Source: Streptomyces xanthii (GTDB lineage: Bacteria; Actinomycetota; Actinomycetes; Streptomycetales; Streptomycetaceae). Taken from it: DNA of 64,000 nt. Below, one piece after another: positions 12,792 through 16,144 of this stretch. The notes beneath the pieces were generated by a model. That model was not told where the DNA came from. It ran no database searches and saw only the letters and a list, made by a program, of their open reading frames with translations. Position 1 is the first letter of the stretch, and every line of letters begins with the position of its first letter. The stretch covers positions 6,200,001 through 6,264,000 of the forward strand of contig NZ_CP061281.1 of the NCBI RefSeq assembly GCF_014621695.1, written 5' to 3'. The position numbers were made by a program, and so were the translations under genes.

Positions 12792-12808
12792 ACCCGCAGG
12801 GCTTGTGA

Positions 12809-12864
12809 GCGGCGACCCTCTCCCTTTAGGGTCAGGTAGACCAATAACGGGAGGGGGTCGCCGC
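12809..12864 (+). promoter_or_regulatory. Inverted repeat that can hide the ribosome binding site of the NrtR-like gene, with a central palindrome
   Basis: Left arm 12809-12823 (gcggcgaccctctcc) pairs with right arm 12850-12864 (ggagggggtcgccgc) over 15 bp with one G-T pair. The right arm contains the ggaggggg ribosome binding site and ends at the base before ATG 12865. The loop holds ggtcaggtagacc (12830-12842), a GGTC-N5-GACC palindrome that could be a repressor operator. Both roles are inference from symmetry and position. Confidence 0.5.
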
Positions 12865-13662
12865 ATGCCCGGCACCGACACACCGGCCGCACCCAGCGCA
12901 CCGGCCCACGCCACACCGGCGTACGACAAGCACGCCTACGAGCCCTTCGCCGTCACCGTCGATCTGGCCGTCTTCACCATCCGCTCCGGCACCCTGCACA
13001 TCCTGCTCGTCGAGCGCGGCCAGGAGCCCTACGCCGGACGCTGGGCCCTGCCCGGCGGCTTCCTGCGGCCCGACGAGTCCGCCGAGGCCGCCGCCCGGCG
13101 CGAGCTCGCCGAGGAGACCGGGCTCGACGACGTGGCCGGCCTGCACCTGGAACAGCTGCGCACCTACAGCGACCCGCGGCGCGACCCCAGGATGCGGGTC
13201 GTCTCCGTCGCCTTCGCCGCGCTCGTCCCCGACGCCCCGCAGGCGCACGGCGGCGGCGACGCGGCCCGCGCCGCCTGGATCCCGTACGGCGGCGAGGACA
13301 CCGGAGCCCACGGGCCCCTCGCCTTCGACCACGACCGGATCCTCGCGGACGCCCACGAGCGGATCGGCGGCAAGCTCGAGTACACCTGCCTCGCCACCGC
13401 GTTCTGCCCGCCCGAGTTCACCCTCGGCGAGCTCCGCCACGTCTACGAGGTCGTCTGGGGCACCGAGCTCGACCCCGCGAACTTCCGGCGCAAGGTACTC
13501 GCGACCCCCGGCTTCGTCGCCCAGATCCCCGGCGCCTCCCGGCTGACCGGCGGCCGCGGCAAGCCCGCAGCCCTCTACCGCGGCGGCGGCGCCGACTCGC
13601 TCCACCCACCGCTGCTGCGCCCCGCACCCGAGCCCGCTCCCACGGAGGGAACCCGCCGATGA
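12865..13662 (+). CDS. NrtR-like regulator: Nudix domain plus winged helix
   Basis: 265 residues. A Nudix domain (about 28-160) carries a complete Nudix box at 65-87, GFLRPDESAEAAARRELAEE followed by TGL. The C-terminal domain (about 165-235, PPEFTLGELRHVYEVVWG then NFRRKVLATPGFV) is the winged helix of NrtR transcription factors, which repress NAD-metabolism genes and respond to ADP-ribose. In many NrtR proteins the catalytic box is degenerate; here it is intact, so hydrolysis may remain. The next gene overlaps by 4 bp (ATGA) and encodes an ADP-ribosylglycohydrolase, so an ADP-ribose signal could be both sensed and produced in the operon. ATG 12865 follows ggaggggg; a GTG at 12805 is possible but would place the repeat inside the coding region. 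Confidence 0.85.
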   Translation: MPGTDTPAAPSAPAHATPAYDKHAYEPFAVTVDLAVFTIRSGTLHILLVERGQEPYAGRWALPGGFLRPDESAEAAARRELAEETGLDDVAGLHLEQLRTYSDPRRDPRMRVVSVAFAALVPDAPQAHGGGDAARAAWIPYGGEDTGAHGPLAFDHDRILADAHERIGGKLEYTCLATAFCPPEFTLGELRHVYEVVWGTELDPANFRRKVLATPGFVAQIPGASRLTGGRGKPAALYRGGGADSLHPPLLRPAPEPAPTEGTRR

Positions 13663-14684
13663 CCGCCCCGACCAAGAACACCGCCACCGGTTCTCTCGTC
13701 GGCCTCGCCCTCGGGGACGCGCTCGGCTTCCCGACCGAGTTCAACGACGTCCCGTCGATCCTCGCCAAGCTCGGCCCCTGGCGGGACATGGACCTGCCCC
13801 GGCCGCTGGCCCACATCACCGACGACACCCAGATGGCACTCGCCGTCGCCCGCGCCCTGCGCACCGGCATGGGGCGCGGCACCCTCGGCCCGAAGCGGTT
13901 CGAGCGGCCGCTGCGCGAGGAGTTCGTCGACTGGTACCACTCGCCCGACAACAACCGCGCGCCCGGCAACACCTGCCTCACCGCCTGCCGCCTCCTCGAC
14001 AGCGACCGCCGCTGGCAGCAGGCCACCCAGATCCACTCCAAGGGCTGCGGCGCCAACATGCGGGTCACCCCTCTCGGCCTCGTCCCAGGCCTGAGCGACG
14101 CGCAGCGCTCCGGCGCCGCCCAGCTGCAGGCCGCGCTCACCCACGGCCACCCCACCGCCCTCGCCGCGAGCGACCTCACCGCGCGGGCCGTCCAGCTCCT
14201 CGCCGAAGGCGTCGACCCCGCCGGACTCGTCGGACAGCTGCGCTCCCACGCCCTGCGCAGCCGCACCGTCTACCGCGAGGACTGGCTCGGCGACCTGTGG
14301 CGCGGCTCCCAGGACCCGGACCCCGAGCACTTCGTCACCCGCGGCTGGGACGAGTGCCTCGCCGTGCTCGAGAAGCTCGAAGCCGCCCTGCGCGACCCCA
14401 ACCCCGAGATCGACCCCTGCCTCGTCACCGGCGCCGGCTGGATCGCCGAAGAGGCCCTCGCCACCGCCCTGTTCTGCTTCCTGCTCTTCGTCGACGAGCC
14501 CGTCCTCGCCCTGCGCCGGGCCGCCTGCACCTCCGGCGACTCCGACTCGATCGCGGCCCTGACCGGCGCCTTCGCGGGCGCCCACCTCGGCACCGACGCC
14601 TGGCCCGAGGACTGGGTCGAGCGCGTCGAGCACCGCGAAGAACTCCTCGCGATCGGCGCCGCCTGGGACGGAGGCACCCTGTGA
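13659..14684 (+). CDS. ADP-ribosylglycohydrolase (DraG/ARH family)
   Basis: Predicted cytosolic Mg-dependent hydrolase that removes ADP-ribose from protein, nucleic acid or a small molecule. 341 residues, all-alpha. The first metal-binding motif is TDDTQMA (Asp55, Asp56) and the second GDSDSIAALTGAFAGAHLG near residue 292, both intact. Start GSLVGLALGDALGFPTEF is the family opening. It overlaps the NrtR-like gene by ATGA and the downstream nucleotidyltransferase by GTGA, so three genes are translationally coupled. The substrate is unknown; the RlaP neighbours point to RNA rather than nitrogenase-type targets. That last point is inference. Confidence 0.92.
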   Translation: MTAPTKNTATGSLVGLALGDALGFPTEFNDVPSILAKLGPWRDMDLPRPLAHITDDTQMALAVARALRTGMGRGTLGPKRFERPLREEFVDWYHSPDNNRAPGNTCLTACRLLDSDRRWQQATQIHSKGCGANMRVTPLGLVPGLSDAQRSGAAQLQAALTHGHPTALAASDLTARAVQLLAEGVDPAGLVGQLRSHALRSRTVYREDWLGDLWRGSQDPDPEHFVTRGWDECLAVLEKLEAALRDPNPEIDPCLVTGAGWIAEEALATALFCFLLFVDEPVLALRRAACTSGDSDSIAALTGAFAGAHLGTDAWPEDWVERVEHREELLAIGAAWDGGTL

Positions 14685-15475
14685 CCGCCCTGACCGACGC
14701 GACCGCCCTCGCCGACGCCGGACTGCCCATGGGCGCCGACCTCGGCGCGATCGTCGCCGACCAGACGGACCCGCTGCTCTTCGCGACCGTCTCCGGCGCC
14801 CACCTGTACGGCTTCCCGTCCCAGGACTCCGACGTCGACCTGCGCGGGGTCCACCTGCTGCCGCCGCGGGCGCTCGTAGGACTGCGCGAACCGGACGAGA
14901 CCCGCTCACGGATGTGGGACAAGGACGGCGTCGAGATGGACCTCGTCACCCACGACCTGCGCAAGTTCGTCCGCCTGATGCTGCGCCGCAACGGCTACGT
15001 CCTGGAGCAGCTGCTCTCGCCGCTCGTCGTGCACACGAGCCCGGCGCACGCCGAACTCGTCGCGCTCGCGCCCGGCGTCCTCACCCGGCACCACGCCCAC
15101 CACTACCGCGGCTTCGCCGGCACCCAGTGGCGGCTCTACGACAGGACGCGCGAACTCAAGCCGCTGCTCTACACCTTCCGCGTCCTGCTCACCGGCATCC
15201 ACCTCATGCGCACCGGCCGCGTCGAGGCCCATCTGCCCACCCTGCTCGACGCCGTCGACGCCCCCGGCTACCTGCCCGGGCTGATCGAGGCGAAGGCCGC
15301 CGCCGAGCACGGCGGCACCGACCTCCCCCACGAGCGGGCCGCCGCCGACGTCGAGACGCTGCACGCGGAGCTCGACGCGGCGCAGGCCGCGAGCACGCTG
15401 CCGGACGAGCCGGGCGCGTACGACGCGCTCGACGACCTGATCGTCCGGGTACGGCTAGCGGGCCTCCAGGGCTGA
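14681..15475 (+). CDS. RlaP-type nucleotidyltransferase (DNA polymerase beta superfamily), copy 1
   Basis: 264-residue predicted nucleotidyltransferase of PF10127 type, called RlaP in comparative work on RNA repair. The nucleotide-binding motif is SGAHLYGFPSQDSDVDLRG (about 38-56), with Asp51 and Asp53 as metal ligands and a later strand EMDLVTHDL giving a candidate third acid. The helical remainder resembles the family (HHYRGFAGTQWRLYDRTREL, LKPLLYTFRVLLTGIHLM). GTG 14681 overlaps the ADP-ribosylglycohydrolase stop. The final 21 bp overlap the end of a second, opposite-strand RlaP gene. No enzymatic role in Streptomyces is known to me. Confidence 0.85.
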   Translation: MTALTDATALADAGLPMGADLGAIVADQTDPLLFATVSGAHLYGFPSQDSDVDLRGVHLLPPRALVGLREPDETRSRMWDKDGVEMDLVTHDLRKFVRLMLRRNGYVLEQLLSPLVVHTSPAHAELVALAPGVLTRHHAHHYRGFAGTQWRLYDRTRELKPLLYTFRVLLTGIHLMRTGRVEAHLPTLLDAVDAPGYLPGLIEAKAAAEHGGTDLPHERAAADVETLHAELDAAQAASTLPDEPGAYDALDDLIVRVRLAGLQG

Positions 15476-16144
15476 GGCCCGCCGGGTCCGGACGAGGAAG
15501 TCCTCGACCCGGGCCCGGTCCGGCTCGGCCGGAAGGGGAGTGCGCTCCGCGGCCTGCTCGGCCTGGGCCGCGAGAGCCGCCATCCGGCGCTCGACCTCCG
15601 GCCACGGCACCTCGCCGCGCTTCACCGCGAGCAGTTCCTCCCGCTGCCCGCTCACGTCGATCATCAGCTCCCCGGTGCGCAGCAGATCCCGGCAGGAGGT
15701 CAGCAGGCGCAGCAGGTGCATGGCGTGCTTCCAGCGCGGGGCGCCGTGCGTGCGCACGTCCGCCTCCAGCTTCTTGCGCTGGCCGAGCGCGTAGCGGGCG
15801 AACGTGTCGTGCGCCTGCCGGGACAGGAAGGCGTCGCGCAGGCCGAGCAGTTCACGCCCCGTGTCCGTGATCCGCTCCACGATCGGCGAGTGCAGACACT
15901 CCAGCACGTTCGGGTTCGCCCGCAGCGCCAGCGAGCAGAACCGCTCCAGCTCCCACGAGAACTGCTCCTCGGCCGGCCCGTCCACATGCGTCGGCGGCTT
16001 CTCGAAGCGCCAGAACAGCGGCGTCGGCGCCAGGAACACGCCCCGCCGGTCCGTGTCGCTGCCCTCCGTGGCCAGCCCGAAGGCGCGCGAACCCATCACG
16101 CACGCGTACACCGTGTGATCACGCACCAGCCGCTCCGGTTCCAT
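15455..16144 (-). CDS. RlaP-type nucleotidyltransferase, copy 2 (convergent)
   Basis: 229 residues, same family as the preceding gene but diverged: MGSRAFGLATEGSDTDRRG (about 17-35) is the canonical GS-x4-G-x6-D-x-D motif and is closer to the family consensus than copy 1. LRANPNVLECLHSP and RKKLEADVRTHGAPRWKHAM are further family segments; the acid strand SWELERF provides a possible third ligand. ATG 16144 has only a weak ribosome binding site. It converges on copy 1 with a 21-bp overlap, so each transcript runs antisense into the other. Two dissimilar family members side by side suggest different RNA or nucleotide substrates. Confidence 0.85.
   Translation of the reverse strand: MEPERLVRDHTVYACVMGSRAFGLATEGSDTDRRGVFLAPTPLFWRFEKPPTHVDGPAEEQFSWELERFCSLALRANPNVLECLHSPIVERITDTGRELLGLRDAFLSRQAHDTFARYALGQRKKLEADVRTHGAPRWKHAMHLLRLLTSCRDLLRTGELMIDVSGQREELLAVKRGEVPWPEVERRMAALAAQAEQAAERTPLPAEPDRARVEDFLVRTRRASALEAR

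What the first reader, a model, noticed from the sequence alone, without database searches (positions are those of the whole stretch)
12809..16144. Nudix regulator, ADP-ribosylglycohydrolase and two RlaP nucleotidyltransferases as one locus
Three coupled genes (ATGA and GTGA overlaps) encode an NrtR-like Nudix/winged-helix protein with an intact catalytic box, an ADP-ribosylglycohydrolase and an RlaP-type nucleotidyltransferase. A second, diverged RlaP gene converges on the first with a 21-bp overlap. RlaP (PF10127) was proposed from comparative genomics to belong to RNA repair, and NrtR proteins sense ADP-ribose. This gives a candidate NAD/ADP-ribose-linked RNA or nucleotide repair system: damage or ADP-ribosylation removed, an end re-extended, and the cluster switched by its product. 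The function is inference; I know of no experiment on it in Streptomyces.
Basis: partly seen in the sequence, partly recalled or inferred. Interest (0 to 1): 0.78.

Follow-up and report, generated by a model that had tools for sequence, protein, structure and literature searches.

The report
ADP-ribose operon with RNA-repair enzymes
A soil bacterium carries a small self-regulated gene cluster that joins an enzyme for removing ADP-ribose tags with a matched pair of enzymes that belong to a known broken-RNA repair machine, hinting that cells may tie RNA repair to their NAD/ADP-ribose state.

Summary
Three coupled genes (Nudix/winged-helix regulator 12865-13662, ADP-ribosylglycohydrolase 13659-14684, RlaP-A 14681-15475) face a convergent RlaP-B (15455-16144). 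Three things are added. (1) A palindrome, TTTATAGTC-N5-GACTATTAA, overlaps the operon's -10 box. It is the only such site in the genome and is absent from all 14 examined relatives that lack the regulator. In 8 of 80 relatives it also precedes the NAD-salvage gene nadR (pnuC in 7). The regulator is therefore best read as a local NrtR-type autorepressor. (2) The two RlaPs are not a recent duplication. They match (55% and 51%) the two RlaPs of Deinococcus hen1-rlaP-rlaP-pnkp operons. The window's genome has Pnkp-Hen1 elsewhere, and RlaP and Hen1 co-occur across 246 actinomycete genomes (59 both, 14 RlaP only, 16 Hen1 only, 157 neither). (3) Linkage to this ADP-ribosylglycohydrolase was seen only in Streptomyces and is partly dispensable. 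The RNA-repair and NAD-control halves are each well supported. That they form one pathway (uncapping ADP-ribosylated RNA, re-extending it, then sealing by Pnkp-Hen1) is inference. The glycohydrolase + Nudix-regulator pairing is already in print; the coupling to RlaP was not found in the papers searched.

The parts
12803..12808 (+). -35 hexamer TTGTGA of the nrtR promoter (proposed)
   Evidence: 48 of 57 operator-bearing loci (window included) have as best -35 a TTG-type hexamer 15-20 nt upstream of the -10
12825..12847 (+). NrtR-type operator TTTAGGGTCAGGTAGACCAATAA, overlapping the -10 (TAGGGT, 12827-12832)
   Evidence: only site in the 8.35-Mb genome at up to 2 mismatches from an IUPAC pattern, reversed control 0; consensus TTTATAGTCN5GACTATTAA in relatives; of 77 loci, 61 of 63 with NrtR have it and 0 of 14 without NrtR
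12865..13662 (+). NrtR-like Nudix/winged-helix regulator, Nudix box intact
13659..14684 (+). ADP-ribosylglycohydrolase (ARH/DraG family); DDT55-57 and DSDS294-297 each kept in over 97% of 77 aligned sequences
14681..15475 (+). RlaP-A nucleotidyltransferase (SGAH...DSDVD; counterpart of Deinococcus RlaP2)
15455..16144 (-). RlaP-B nucleotidyltransferase (GSRA...SDTD; counterpart of Deinococcus RlaP1), convergent, so a separate transcription unit

Best explanation
An ADP-ribose/NAD-responsive operon that supplies accessory enzymes to the cell's Pnkp-Hen1 RNA-repair machine, encoded elsewhere in the genome. NrtR binds the palindrome over the -10 box and represses nrtR-arh-rlaPA (strongly supported by comparative evidence; binding itself untested). 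An NAD-derived ligand, most likely ADP-ribose, lifts repression, and the intact Nudix box may then hydrolyse it (inferred from the family). ARH strips ADP-ribose from a macromolecule, plausibly phosphate-ended RNA (inferred). RlaP-A and RlaP-B act as a matched pair that re-extends or edits damaged RNA 3' ends before Pnkp-Hen1 methylates and seals them (pairing with Pnkp-Hen1 supported by orthology and co-occurrence; the chemistry is inferred). My estimates: NrtR autorepression 0.9; ligand in the NAD/ADP-ribose family 0.7; RlaP-A/B working with Pnkp-Hen1 0.75; ARH in the same RNA pathway 0.3-0.4.
For: RlaP-A is 55% identical to D. ficus RlaP2 and RlaP-B 51% to RlaP1, while A vs B is 26-29%. In three Deinococcus plasmids (of four with a hit) the pair lies directly downstream of hen1, with full pnkp after it in two and only a pnkp-like 59-aa match in the third. 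The own genome has adjacent Pnkp (PNKP_ligase 560 bits) and Hen1 (Hen1_L 380 bits) genes. RlaP (any PF10127 type) and Hen1 over cut-off in 246 actinomycete genomes: both 59, RlaP only 14, Hen1 only 16, neither 157; without Streptomyces 39/13/16/154. In 121 Streptomyces: both 100, RlaP only 4, Hen1 only 10, neither 7. An RlaP-A start codon lies 3 or 4 nt after the ARH stop in 69 of 78 loci and overlaps it in 2 more; ATGA/GTGA at the NrtR stop in 52 of 64. Of 77 loci the operator is there with NrtR in 61 of 63 and without it in 0 of 14. nadR (8 of 80) and pnuC (7 of 80) lie between operator and nrtR. An unrelated ARH (29%) sits divergently next to an RlaP-B-A tandem in G051. In print: S. coelicolor KptA (SCO3953) was used to ADP-ribosylate RNA 5'-phosphates and the ARH-like SCO5809 reversed phosphate-end RNA ADP-ribosylation in vitro (PMC11833690 section 18); the own genome has a KptA-family gene (PF01885, 164 bits).
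Against: ARH is not among the annotated neighbours of the Deinococcus cassettes, and in none of 10 other actinomycete genomes with A/B-type RlaPs is a PF03747 gene near them (same contig closest about 98 kb). 19 of 100 ARH-bearing Streptomyces have neither RlaP-A nor RlaP-B, and 54 of 100 lack RlaP-A. RlaP-B lies outside the operon. The cluster sits in a conserved core block (rluB...aroH-tyrA-cmk), so adjacency may persist by synteny. Pnkp-Hen1 is 4.4 Mb away in this genome, and only 2 of the 59 genomes with both have RlaP and Hen1 close together (G346, G350). RlaP-A has GA where Pol-beta nucleotidyltransferases usually have GS (motif recalled). Structure models have low confidence in the catalytic half. 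Fisher values ignore shared ancestry. SCO5809 was not shown here to be this ARH's orthologue.
Confidence: 0.4

Rival explanations
1. Two independent modules share one core locus. NrtR-ARH handles ADP-ribose/NAD turnover (recycling ADP-ribose from endogenous modification), and the RlaP pair, a Pnkp-Hen1 accessory, merely landed beside it in a Streptomyces ancestor and is kept by synteny and read-through.
For: 19 of 100 ARH genomes lack RlaP-A and RlaP-B; A/B-type RlaPs in 10 of 10 other actinomycete genomes have no ARH nearby; RlaP-B persists without ARH at the same slot in G118, G092 and G079; pnuC/nadR tie NrtR to NAD, not to RNA.
Against: An RlaP-A start lies +3/+4 nt after the ARH stop in 69 of 78 loci; RlaP-A occurs with ARH in 46 of 48 genomes; an unrelated ARH sits beside the pair in G051.
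Confidence: 0.32
2. It is an ARG-centric counter-conflict system of the kind predicted by Iyer and co-workers: silent until an invading virus or toxin ADP-ribosylates host molecules, then ADP-ribose released by ARH derepresses the operon; RlaP mends RNA damaged in the same attack.
For: That paper predicts widespread ARG systems with Nudix-HTH regulators, in actinobacteria too, and the same derepression logic (PMC9503650 section 31 in the tool's numbering). Remnants of cluster genes in several genomes (G007, G012, G059, G103, G108, G110) fit a dispensable defence.
Against: No phosphatase, chaperone or REase among the family-searched genes from scpA to cmk; no PADLOC hit for ARH or RlaP, only a weak Nudix hit; a stable chromosomal core position rather than a mobile island; nadR/pnuC in the regulon of some relatives suggest metabolism.
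Confidence: 0.18
3. RlaP-A/B are not RNA repair enzymes but nucleotidylate proteins or make a signalling nucleotide (as minimal nucleotidyltransferases of MNT-HEPN pairs or HalB do; recalled), with ARH/NrtR setting NAD-linked control.
Against: Counterparts lie inside hen1 operons; strong co-occurrence with Hen1.
Confidence: 0.1

Closest known systems
ARG-centric Nudix/WYL-regulated systems (Iyer et al. 2022, PMC9503650, section 3.8; that section read in full, other parts as passages)
   Same: ARH-family hydrolase without a neighbouring ADP-ribosyltransferase, with a Nudix-HTH regulator; actinobacteria included
   Different: that section names phosphatases, chaperones, REases, Macro/NADAR and ARPP as partners and no RlaP ('RlaP' occurs 0 times in the main text); here the partner is an RlaP pair and, in some relatives, pnuC-nadR
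Pnkp-Hen1 RNA repair cassette with two RlaPs (Deinococcus plasmids; biochemistry of the related Pnkp1-Rnl-Hen1 complex in PMC4411300, passages seen)
   Same: RlaP-A and RlaP-B match the two RlaPs one to one; Pnkp and Hen1 are present in the same genome
   Different: in Streptomyces the pair is outside the ligase operon and sits with NrtR-ARH, in convergent rather than tandem order
NrtR regulators of NAD metabolism (MsNrtR, PMC6800001, passages seen)
   Same: Nudix + winged helix, palindrome at its own promoter, NAD genes in some relatives
   Different: the operator differs from the mycobacterial GTTTTCGA-N7-TCGAAAAC; the Nudix box is intact here whereas MsNrtR showed no detectable hydrolase activity; the downstream genes are arh-rlaPA
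D. radiodurans ligase-PARG-kinase operon (DRB0100-0098, described in a discussion passage of PMC11833690)
   Same: an ADP-ribosylhydrolase coupled to nucleic-acid end-healing enzymes
   Different: macrodomain PARG rather than ARH; no RlaP or NrtR in the passage seen

Membership tests
NrtR regulator family | Nudix domain followed by NrtR winged-helix domain | tested here: met
   PF00293 74.6 bits and PF21906 51.5 bits, both over cut-off; AraR and SoNrtR-type structures score alike
NrtR regulator family | palindromic operator at its own promoter | tested here: met
   (sequence evidence; no binding assay)
NrtR regulator family | control of NAD biosynthesis or salvage genes | tested here: inconclusive
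   nadR in 8 and pnuC in 7 of 80 relatives, no hit in the window
NrtR regulator family | ADP-ribose as ligand | not testable with these tools
   family knowledge (passages)
NCBIfam equivalog NF050029 (ADPR-responsive repressor) | score over curated cut-off | tested here: not met
   131.9 bits against 400: related, not that equivalog
ARH/DraG ADP-ribosylglycohydrolase | PF03747 over cut-off with both metal-site motifs (motifs recalled) | tested here: met
   220 bits; DDT and DSDS each kept in over 97% of 77 sequences
ARH/DraG ADP-ribosylglycohydrolase | hydrolase activity and substrate | not testable with these tools
   -
RlaP (PF10127) | profile over cut-off | tested here: met
   180 and 113 bits against 23
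RlaP (PF10127) | Pol-beta motif: G-S, D-x-D, third carboxylate (recalled) | tested here: inconclusive
   RlaP-B GSRA, D30/D32, E65; RlaP-A D51/D53, D87/D92, all invariant in A1-A4, but RlaP-A has GA for GS
RlaP (PF10127) | nucleotidyltransferase fold | tested here: inconclusive
Pnkp-Hen1 RNA repair system component | Pnkp and Hen1 in the genome | tested here: met
   L158
Pnkp-Hen1 RNA repair system component | same operon as Pnkp-Hen1 | tested here: not met
   4.4 Mb apart in the window's genome; linked in Deinococcus
ARG-centric counter-conflict system | ARH plus Nudix or WYL regulator without an ADP-ribosyltransferase neighbour | tested here: met
   genes from scpA to cmk family-searched
ARG-centric counter-conflict system | frequent partners (phosphatase, chaperone, REase) | tested here: not met
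   none among the genes family-searched from scpA to cmk

The most novel reading that the evidence does not exclude
Bacterial RNA repair under ADP-ribose control: ADP-ribosylated or NAD-derived blocks on broken RNA ends are removed by this ARH, the freed ADP-ribose relieves NrtR, and the induced RlaP-A, with RlaP-B, rebuilds the 3' end so that Pnkp-Hen1 can seal it. This would be a feedback loop linking NAD status, RNA uncapping and RNA re-synthesis.
Probability: 0.2. Interest if true: 0.85.

Novelty: new variant of a known kind. Interest (0 to 1): 0.56.

Why it matters
RlaP has been placed in RNA repair by comparative genomics; the passages I could see cite no experiment on it. This locus gives a concrete two-protein RlaP pair with counterparts inside hen1-pnkp operons, a predicted partner machine in the same genome, and a single-site regulator through which its expression could be switched. 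If the ARH link is real, removal of RNA ADP-ribosylation and RNA re-ligation, two fields now studied apart, become one pathway testable in laboratory Streptomyces.

Tried and rejected

RlaP-B as a recent duplicate of RlaP-A: rejected; each is closer to its Deinococcus counterpart than to the other.

Second ARH beside RlaP in G057 and G103: rejected as independent cases. In G057 the piece is a C-terminal remnant that resembles the canonical ARH tail, and in G103 a remnant at the canonical slot. Only G051 remains.

The 60% NrtR paralogue (L111) as part of the same regulon: not supported; it lies beside a glycogen-debranching-type gene and no further operator match was found in the genome.

Viral origin of A/B-type RlaP: one partial relative in IMG/VR for A, none for B, by pattern-limited scans; phage records hold only distant RlaPs, at most 36% identity to RlaP-A.

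RlaP-B promoter: no consensus promoter found in the region; the same scan also misses the nrtR promoter.

Long GC-rich arms around the operator: 12-base arms match 5.5 of 12 on average against 4.6 in shuffles, so the larger palindrome is not claimed.

Structure prediction with a Streptomyces-only alignment gave low confidence in the catalytic part; Foldseek gave nothing at E<=0.001. A deeper alignment was not sent because of the tool's stated sequence rule. No VIA look was made for RlaP-B.

Literature: Burroughs and Aravind 2016 (RNA repair) and Rodionov et al. 2008 (NrtR) were not held, so whether either already lists an ARH-RlaP or Streptomyces NrtR operon is unknown; what I say of them is recalled. 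Novelty searches: 30 of 102 papers listed; 15 of 24 listed.

Rows and caveats: RlaP-A and RlaP-B were told apart by profile score and place. There two truncated RlaP-A pieces (G108, G110) were entered with the B list, and G059's hit is largely an RlaP-A remnant, so RlaP-B genomes are 88 as counted, 87 without G059. The listing was cut, so the third RlaP type is undercounted. One search used 59 of 93 collected RlaP-A: 34 were lost because the script stopped at the in-frame ARH stop just upstream of RlaP-A; searches show the same invariant residues. One search counted 77 of 80 loci (rluB and ARH both found). One search used a stricter operator pattern and found sites in 55 of 80. In one search the convergent-overlap lengths were misparsed for many loci and are not used; 3 of 64 NrtR lack the Nudix pattern (two natural variants, one hit that begins after the box). 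Hen1 hits below the curated cut-off (such as G315, 325 bits) were not counted. One of four Deinococcus plasmids with a hit (H8) was not opened.


Full report
Observation. The window (a Streptomyces-type chromosome; all 80 loci kept by the relative search are titled Streptomyces) carries scpA, scpB and a pseudouridine synthase gene (here rluB), then nrtR (12865-13662), arh (13659-14684) and rlaPA (14681-15475), a convergent rlaPB (15455-16144, minus), then a YidB-like gene, aroH, tyrA and cmk (Pfam; order in relatives). Overlaps are ATGA, GTGA and 21 bp as reported. Pfam scores are far over cut-off for all four. The regulator misses the NCBIfam NrtR equivalog cut-off (131.9 of 400 bits) and is best called NrtR-like.

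Regulation. The short gap upstream of nrtR holds TTTAGGGTCAGGTAGACCAATAA. Relatives show the consensus TTTATAGTC-N5-GACTATTAA at the same place. The own genome has exactly one such site at up to two mismatches, with none for the reversed control. Of 77 relatives with rluB and arh, 61 have NrtR and operator, 2 have NrtR without a pattern match (one of them, L087, has a one-base variant visible), 14 have neither, and none has the operator without NrtR. The -10 (TATAGT in 52 of 57 loci, TAGGGT in the window) lies inside the operator, and the best -35 is TTG-type in 48 of 57 loci, window included. Promoter occlusion by NrtR follows as the likely mode. In 8 of 80 relatives nadR (and in 7 also pnuC) lies between the operator and nrtR, which ties the regulator to NAD salvage. 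The Nudix box is intact in the window and in 61 of 64 relatives, unlike MsNrtR, which showed no detectable hydrolase activity (PMC6800001, passages seen).

ARH link. In 121 Streptomyces genomes ARH is found in 100, NrtR beside it in 81, RlaP-A beside it in 44 (RlaP-A in 48 in all), and an RlaP-B-type gene in 88. Full clusters number 36. Several genomes lacking pieces hold remnants (G007, G012, G059, G103, G108, G110), so the full cluster looks ancestral for much of the genus and has decayed piecemeal. In the 80 named relatives, which were chosen by their RlaP-A, an RlaP-A start codon lies 3 or 4 nt after the ARH stop in 69 of 78 loci and overlaps it in 2 more, and ATGA/GTGA marks the NrtR stop in 52 of 64. 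RlaP-A occurs with ARH in 46 of 48 genomes. One genome without this ARH (G051) has an unrelated ARH (29%, PF03747 202 bits) divergent from an RlaP-B-A tandem. Against this, 19 of 100 ARH genomes lack both RlaPs, ARH is absent from the annotated Deinococcus cassettes, in 10 of 10 other actinomycete genomes with A/B-type RlaPs no PF03747 gene is near them, and the slot lies in a conserved core block. This ARH subfamily is nearly confined to Streptomyces: 25 of 246 genomes at E<=1e-40, 4 of them outside the genus.

Mechanism. Shown by sequence: operon structure, one operator, intact ARH metal motifs, intact Nudix box, match of the RlaP pair to RNA-repair cassettes. Inferred: ADP-ribose as inducer, ARH acting on RNA, RlaP adding nucleotides. 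Published precedent for the ARH step is that S. coelicolor KptA ADP-ribosylates RNA 5'-phosphates and that ARH-like SCO5809 removes phosphate-end ADP-ribose from RNA (PMC11833690, outline, passages and section 18 seen). The window's genome has a KptA-family gene. Whether SCO5809 is this ARH's orthologue was not tested.

What is known. Section 3.8 of PMC9503650 (read in full) already proposes ARG-centric systems with Nudix regulators and the same derepression logic; the paper's main text does not mention RlaP. RlaP as a ligase-associated nucleotidyltransferase is described in passages of PMC7824862 and PMC6514570. The two most relevant older papers were not held. The ARH-RlaP-Hen1 connection was not found in the searches listed under Tried and rejected.

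Verdict. A real, widely conserved Streptomyces locus; a new variant that joins two known kinds. The RNA-repair and NAD-control halves are each well supported; their union into one pathway is a good, testable hypothesis.

Noticed in passing
L029 1489-2178, L023 1447-2187, L024 1447-2172 (G013, G017, G034): A third RlaP type (about 60-70 bits) is the only RlaP in 13 of the 30 Streptomyces genomes without RlaP-A/B and was seen in few with A/B (listing cut), as if it displaces the pair.
   Followed up: partly
L111 8695-9537 (minus), G000:C1:1888685-1889458: A second NrtR-like Nudix regulator (60% identical) with an intact Nudix box lies beside a glycogen-debranching-type gene; about 60%-identical copies are listed for many of the 121 Streptomyces (listing cut). 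Its ligand may be a sugar derivative rather than ADP-ribose.
   Followed up: partly
L144 6036-6989 and 7765-8475: Deinococcus RlaP1 carries an extra N-terminal region of about 85 residues, and a 237-aa protein without Pfam match lies between rlaP2 and pnkp.
   Followed up: no
L143 2994-3773: A Thg1-type tRNA-His guanylyltransferase gene lies near hen1-rlaP-rlaP on the D. taeanensis plasmid, where pnkp is reduced to a 59-aa match.
   Followed up: no
L081 6488-8238, L102 7047-8225: pnuC and nadR (NMN transporter and NadR-like enzyme) inserted between the operator and nrtR in 7-8 of 80 relatives; L102 gave a match to nadR only.
   Followed up: yes
L162 5445-6389: An unrelated ARH divergent from an RlaP-B-A tandem in a Streptomyces lacking the usual cluster.
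   Followed up: partly
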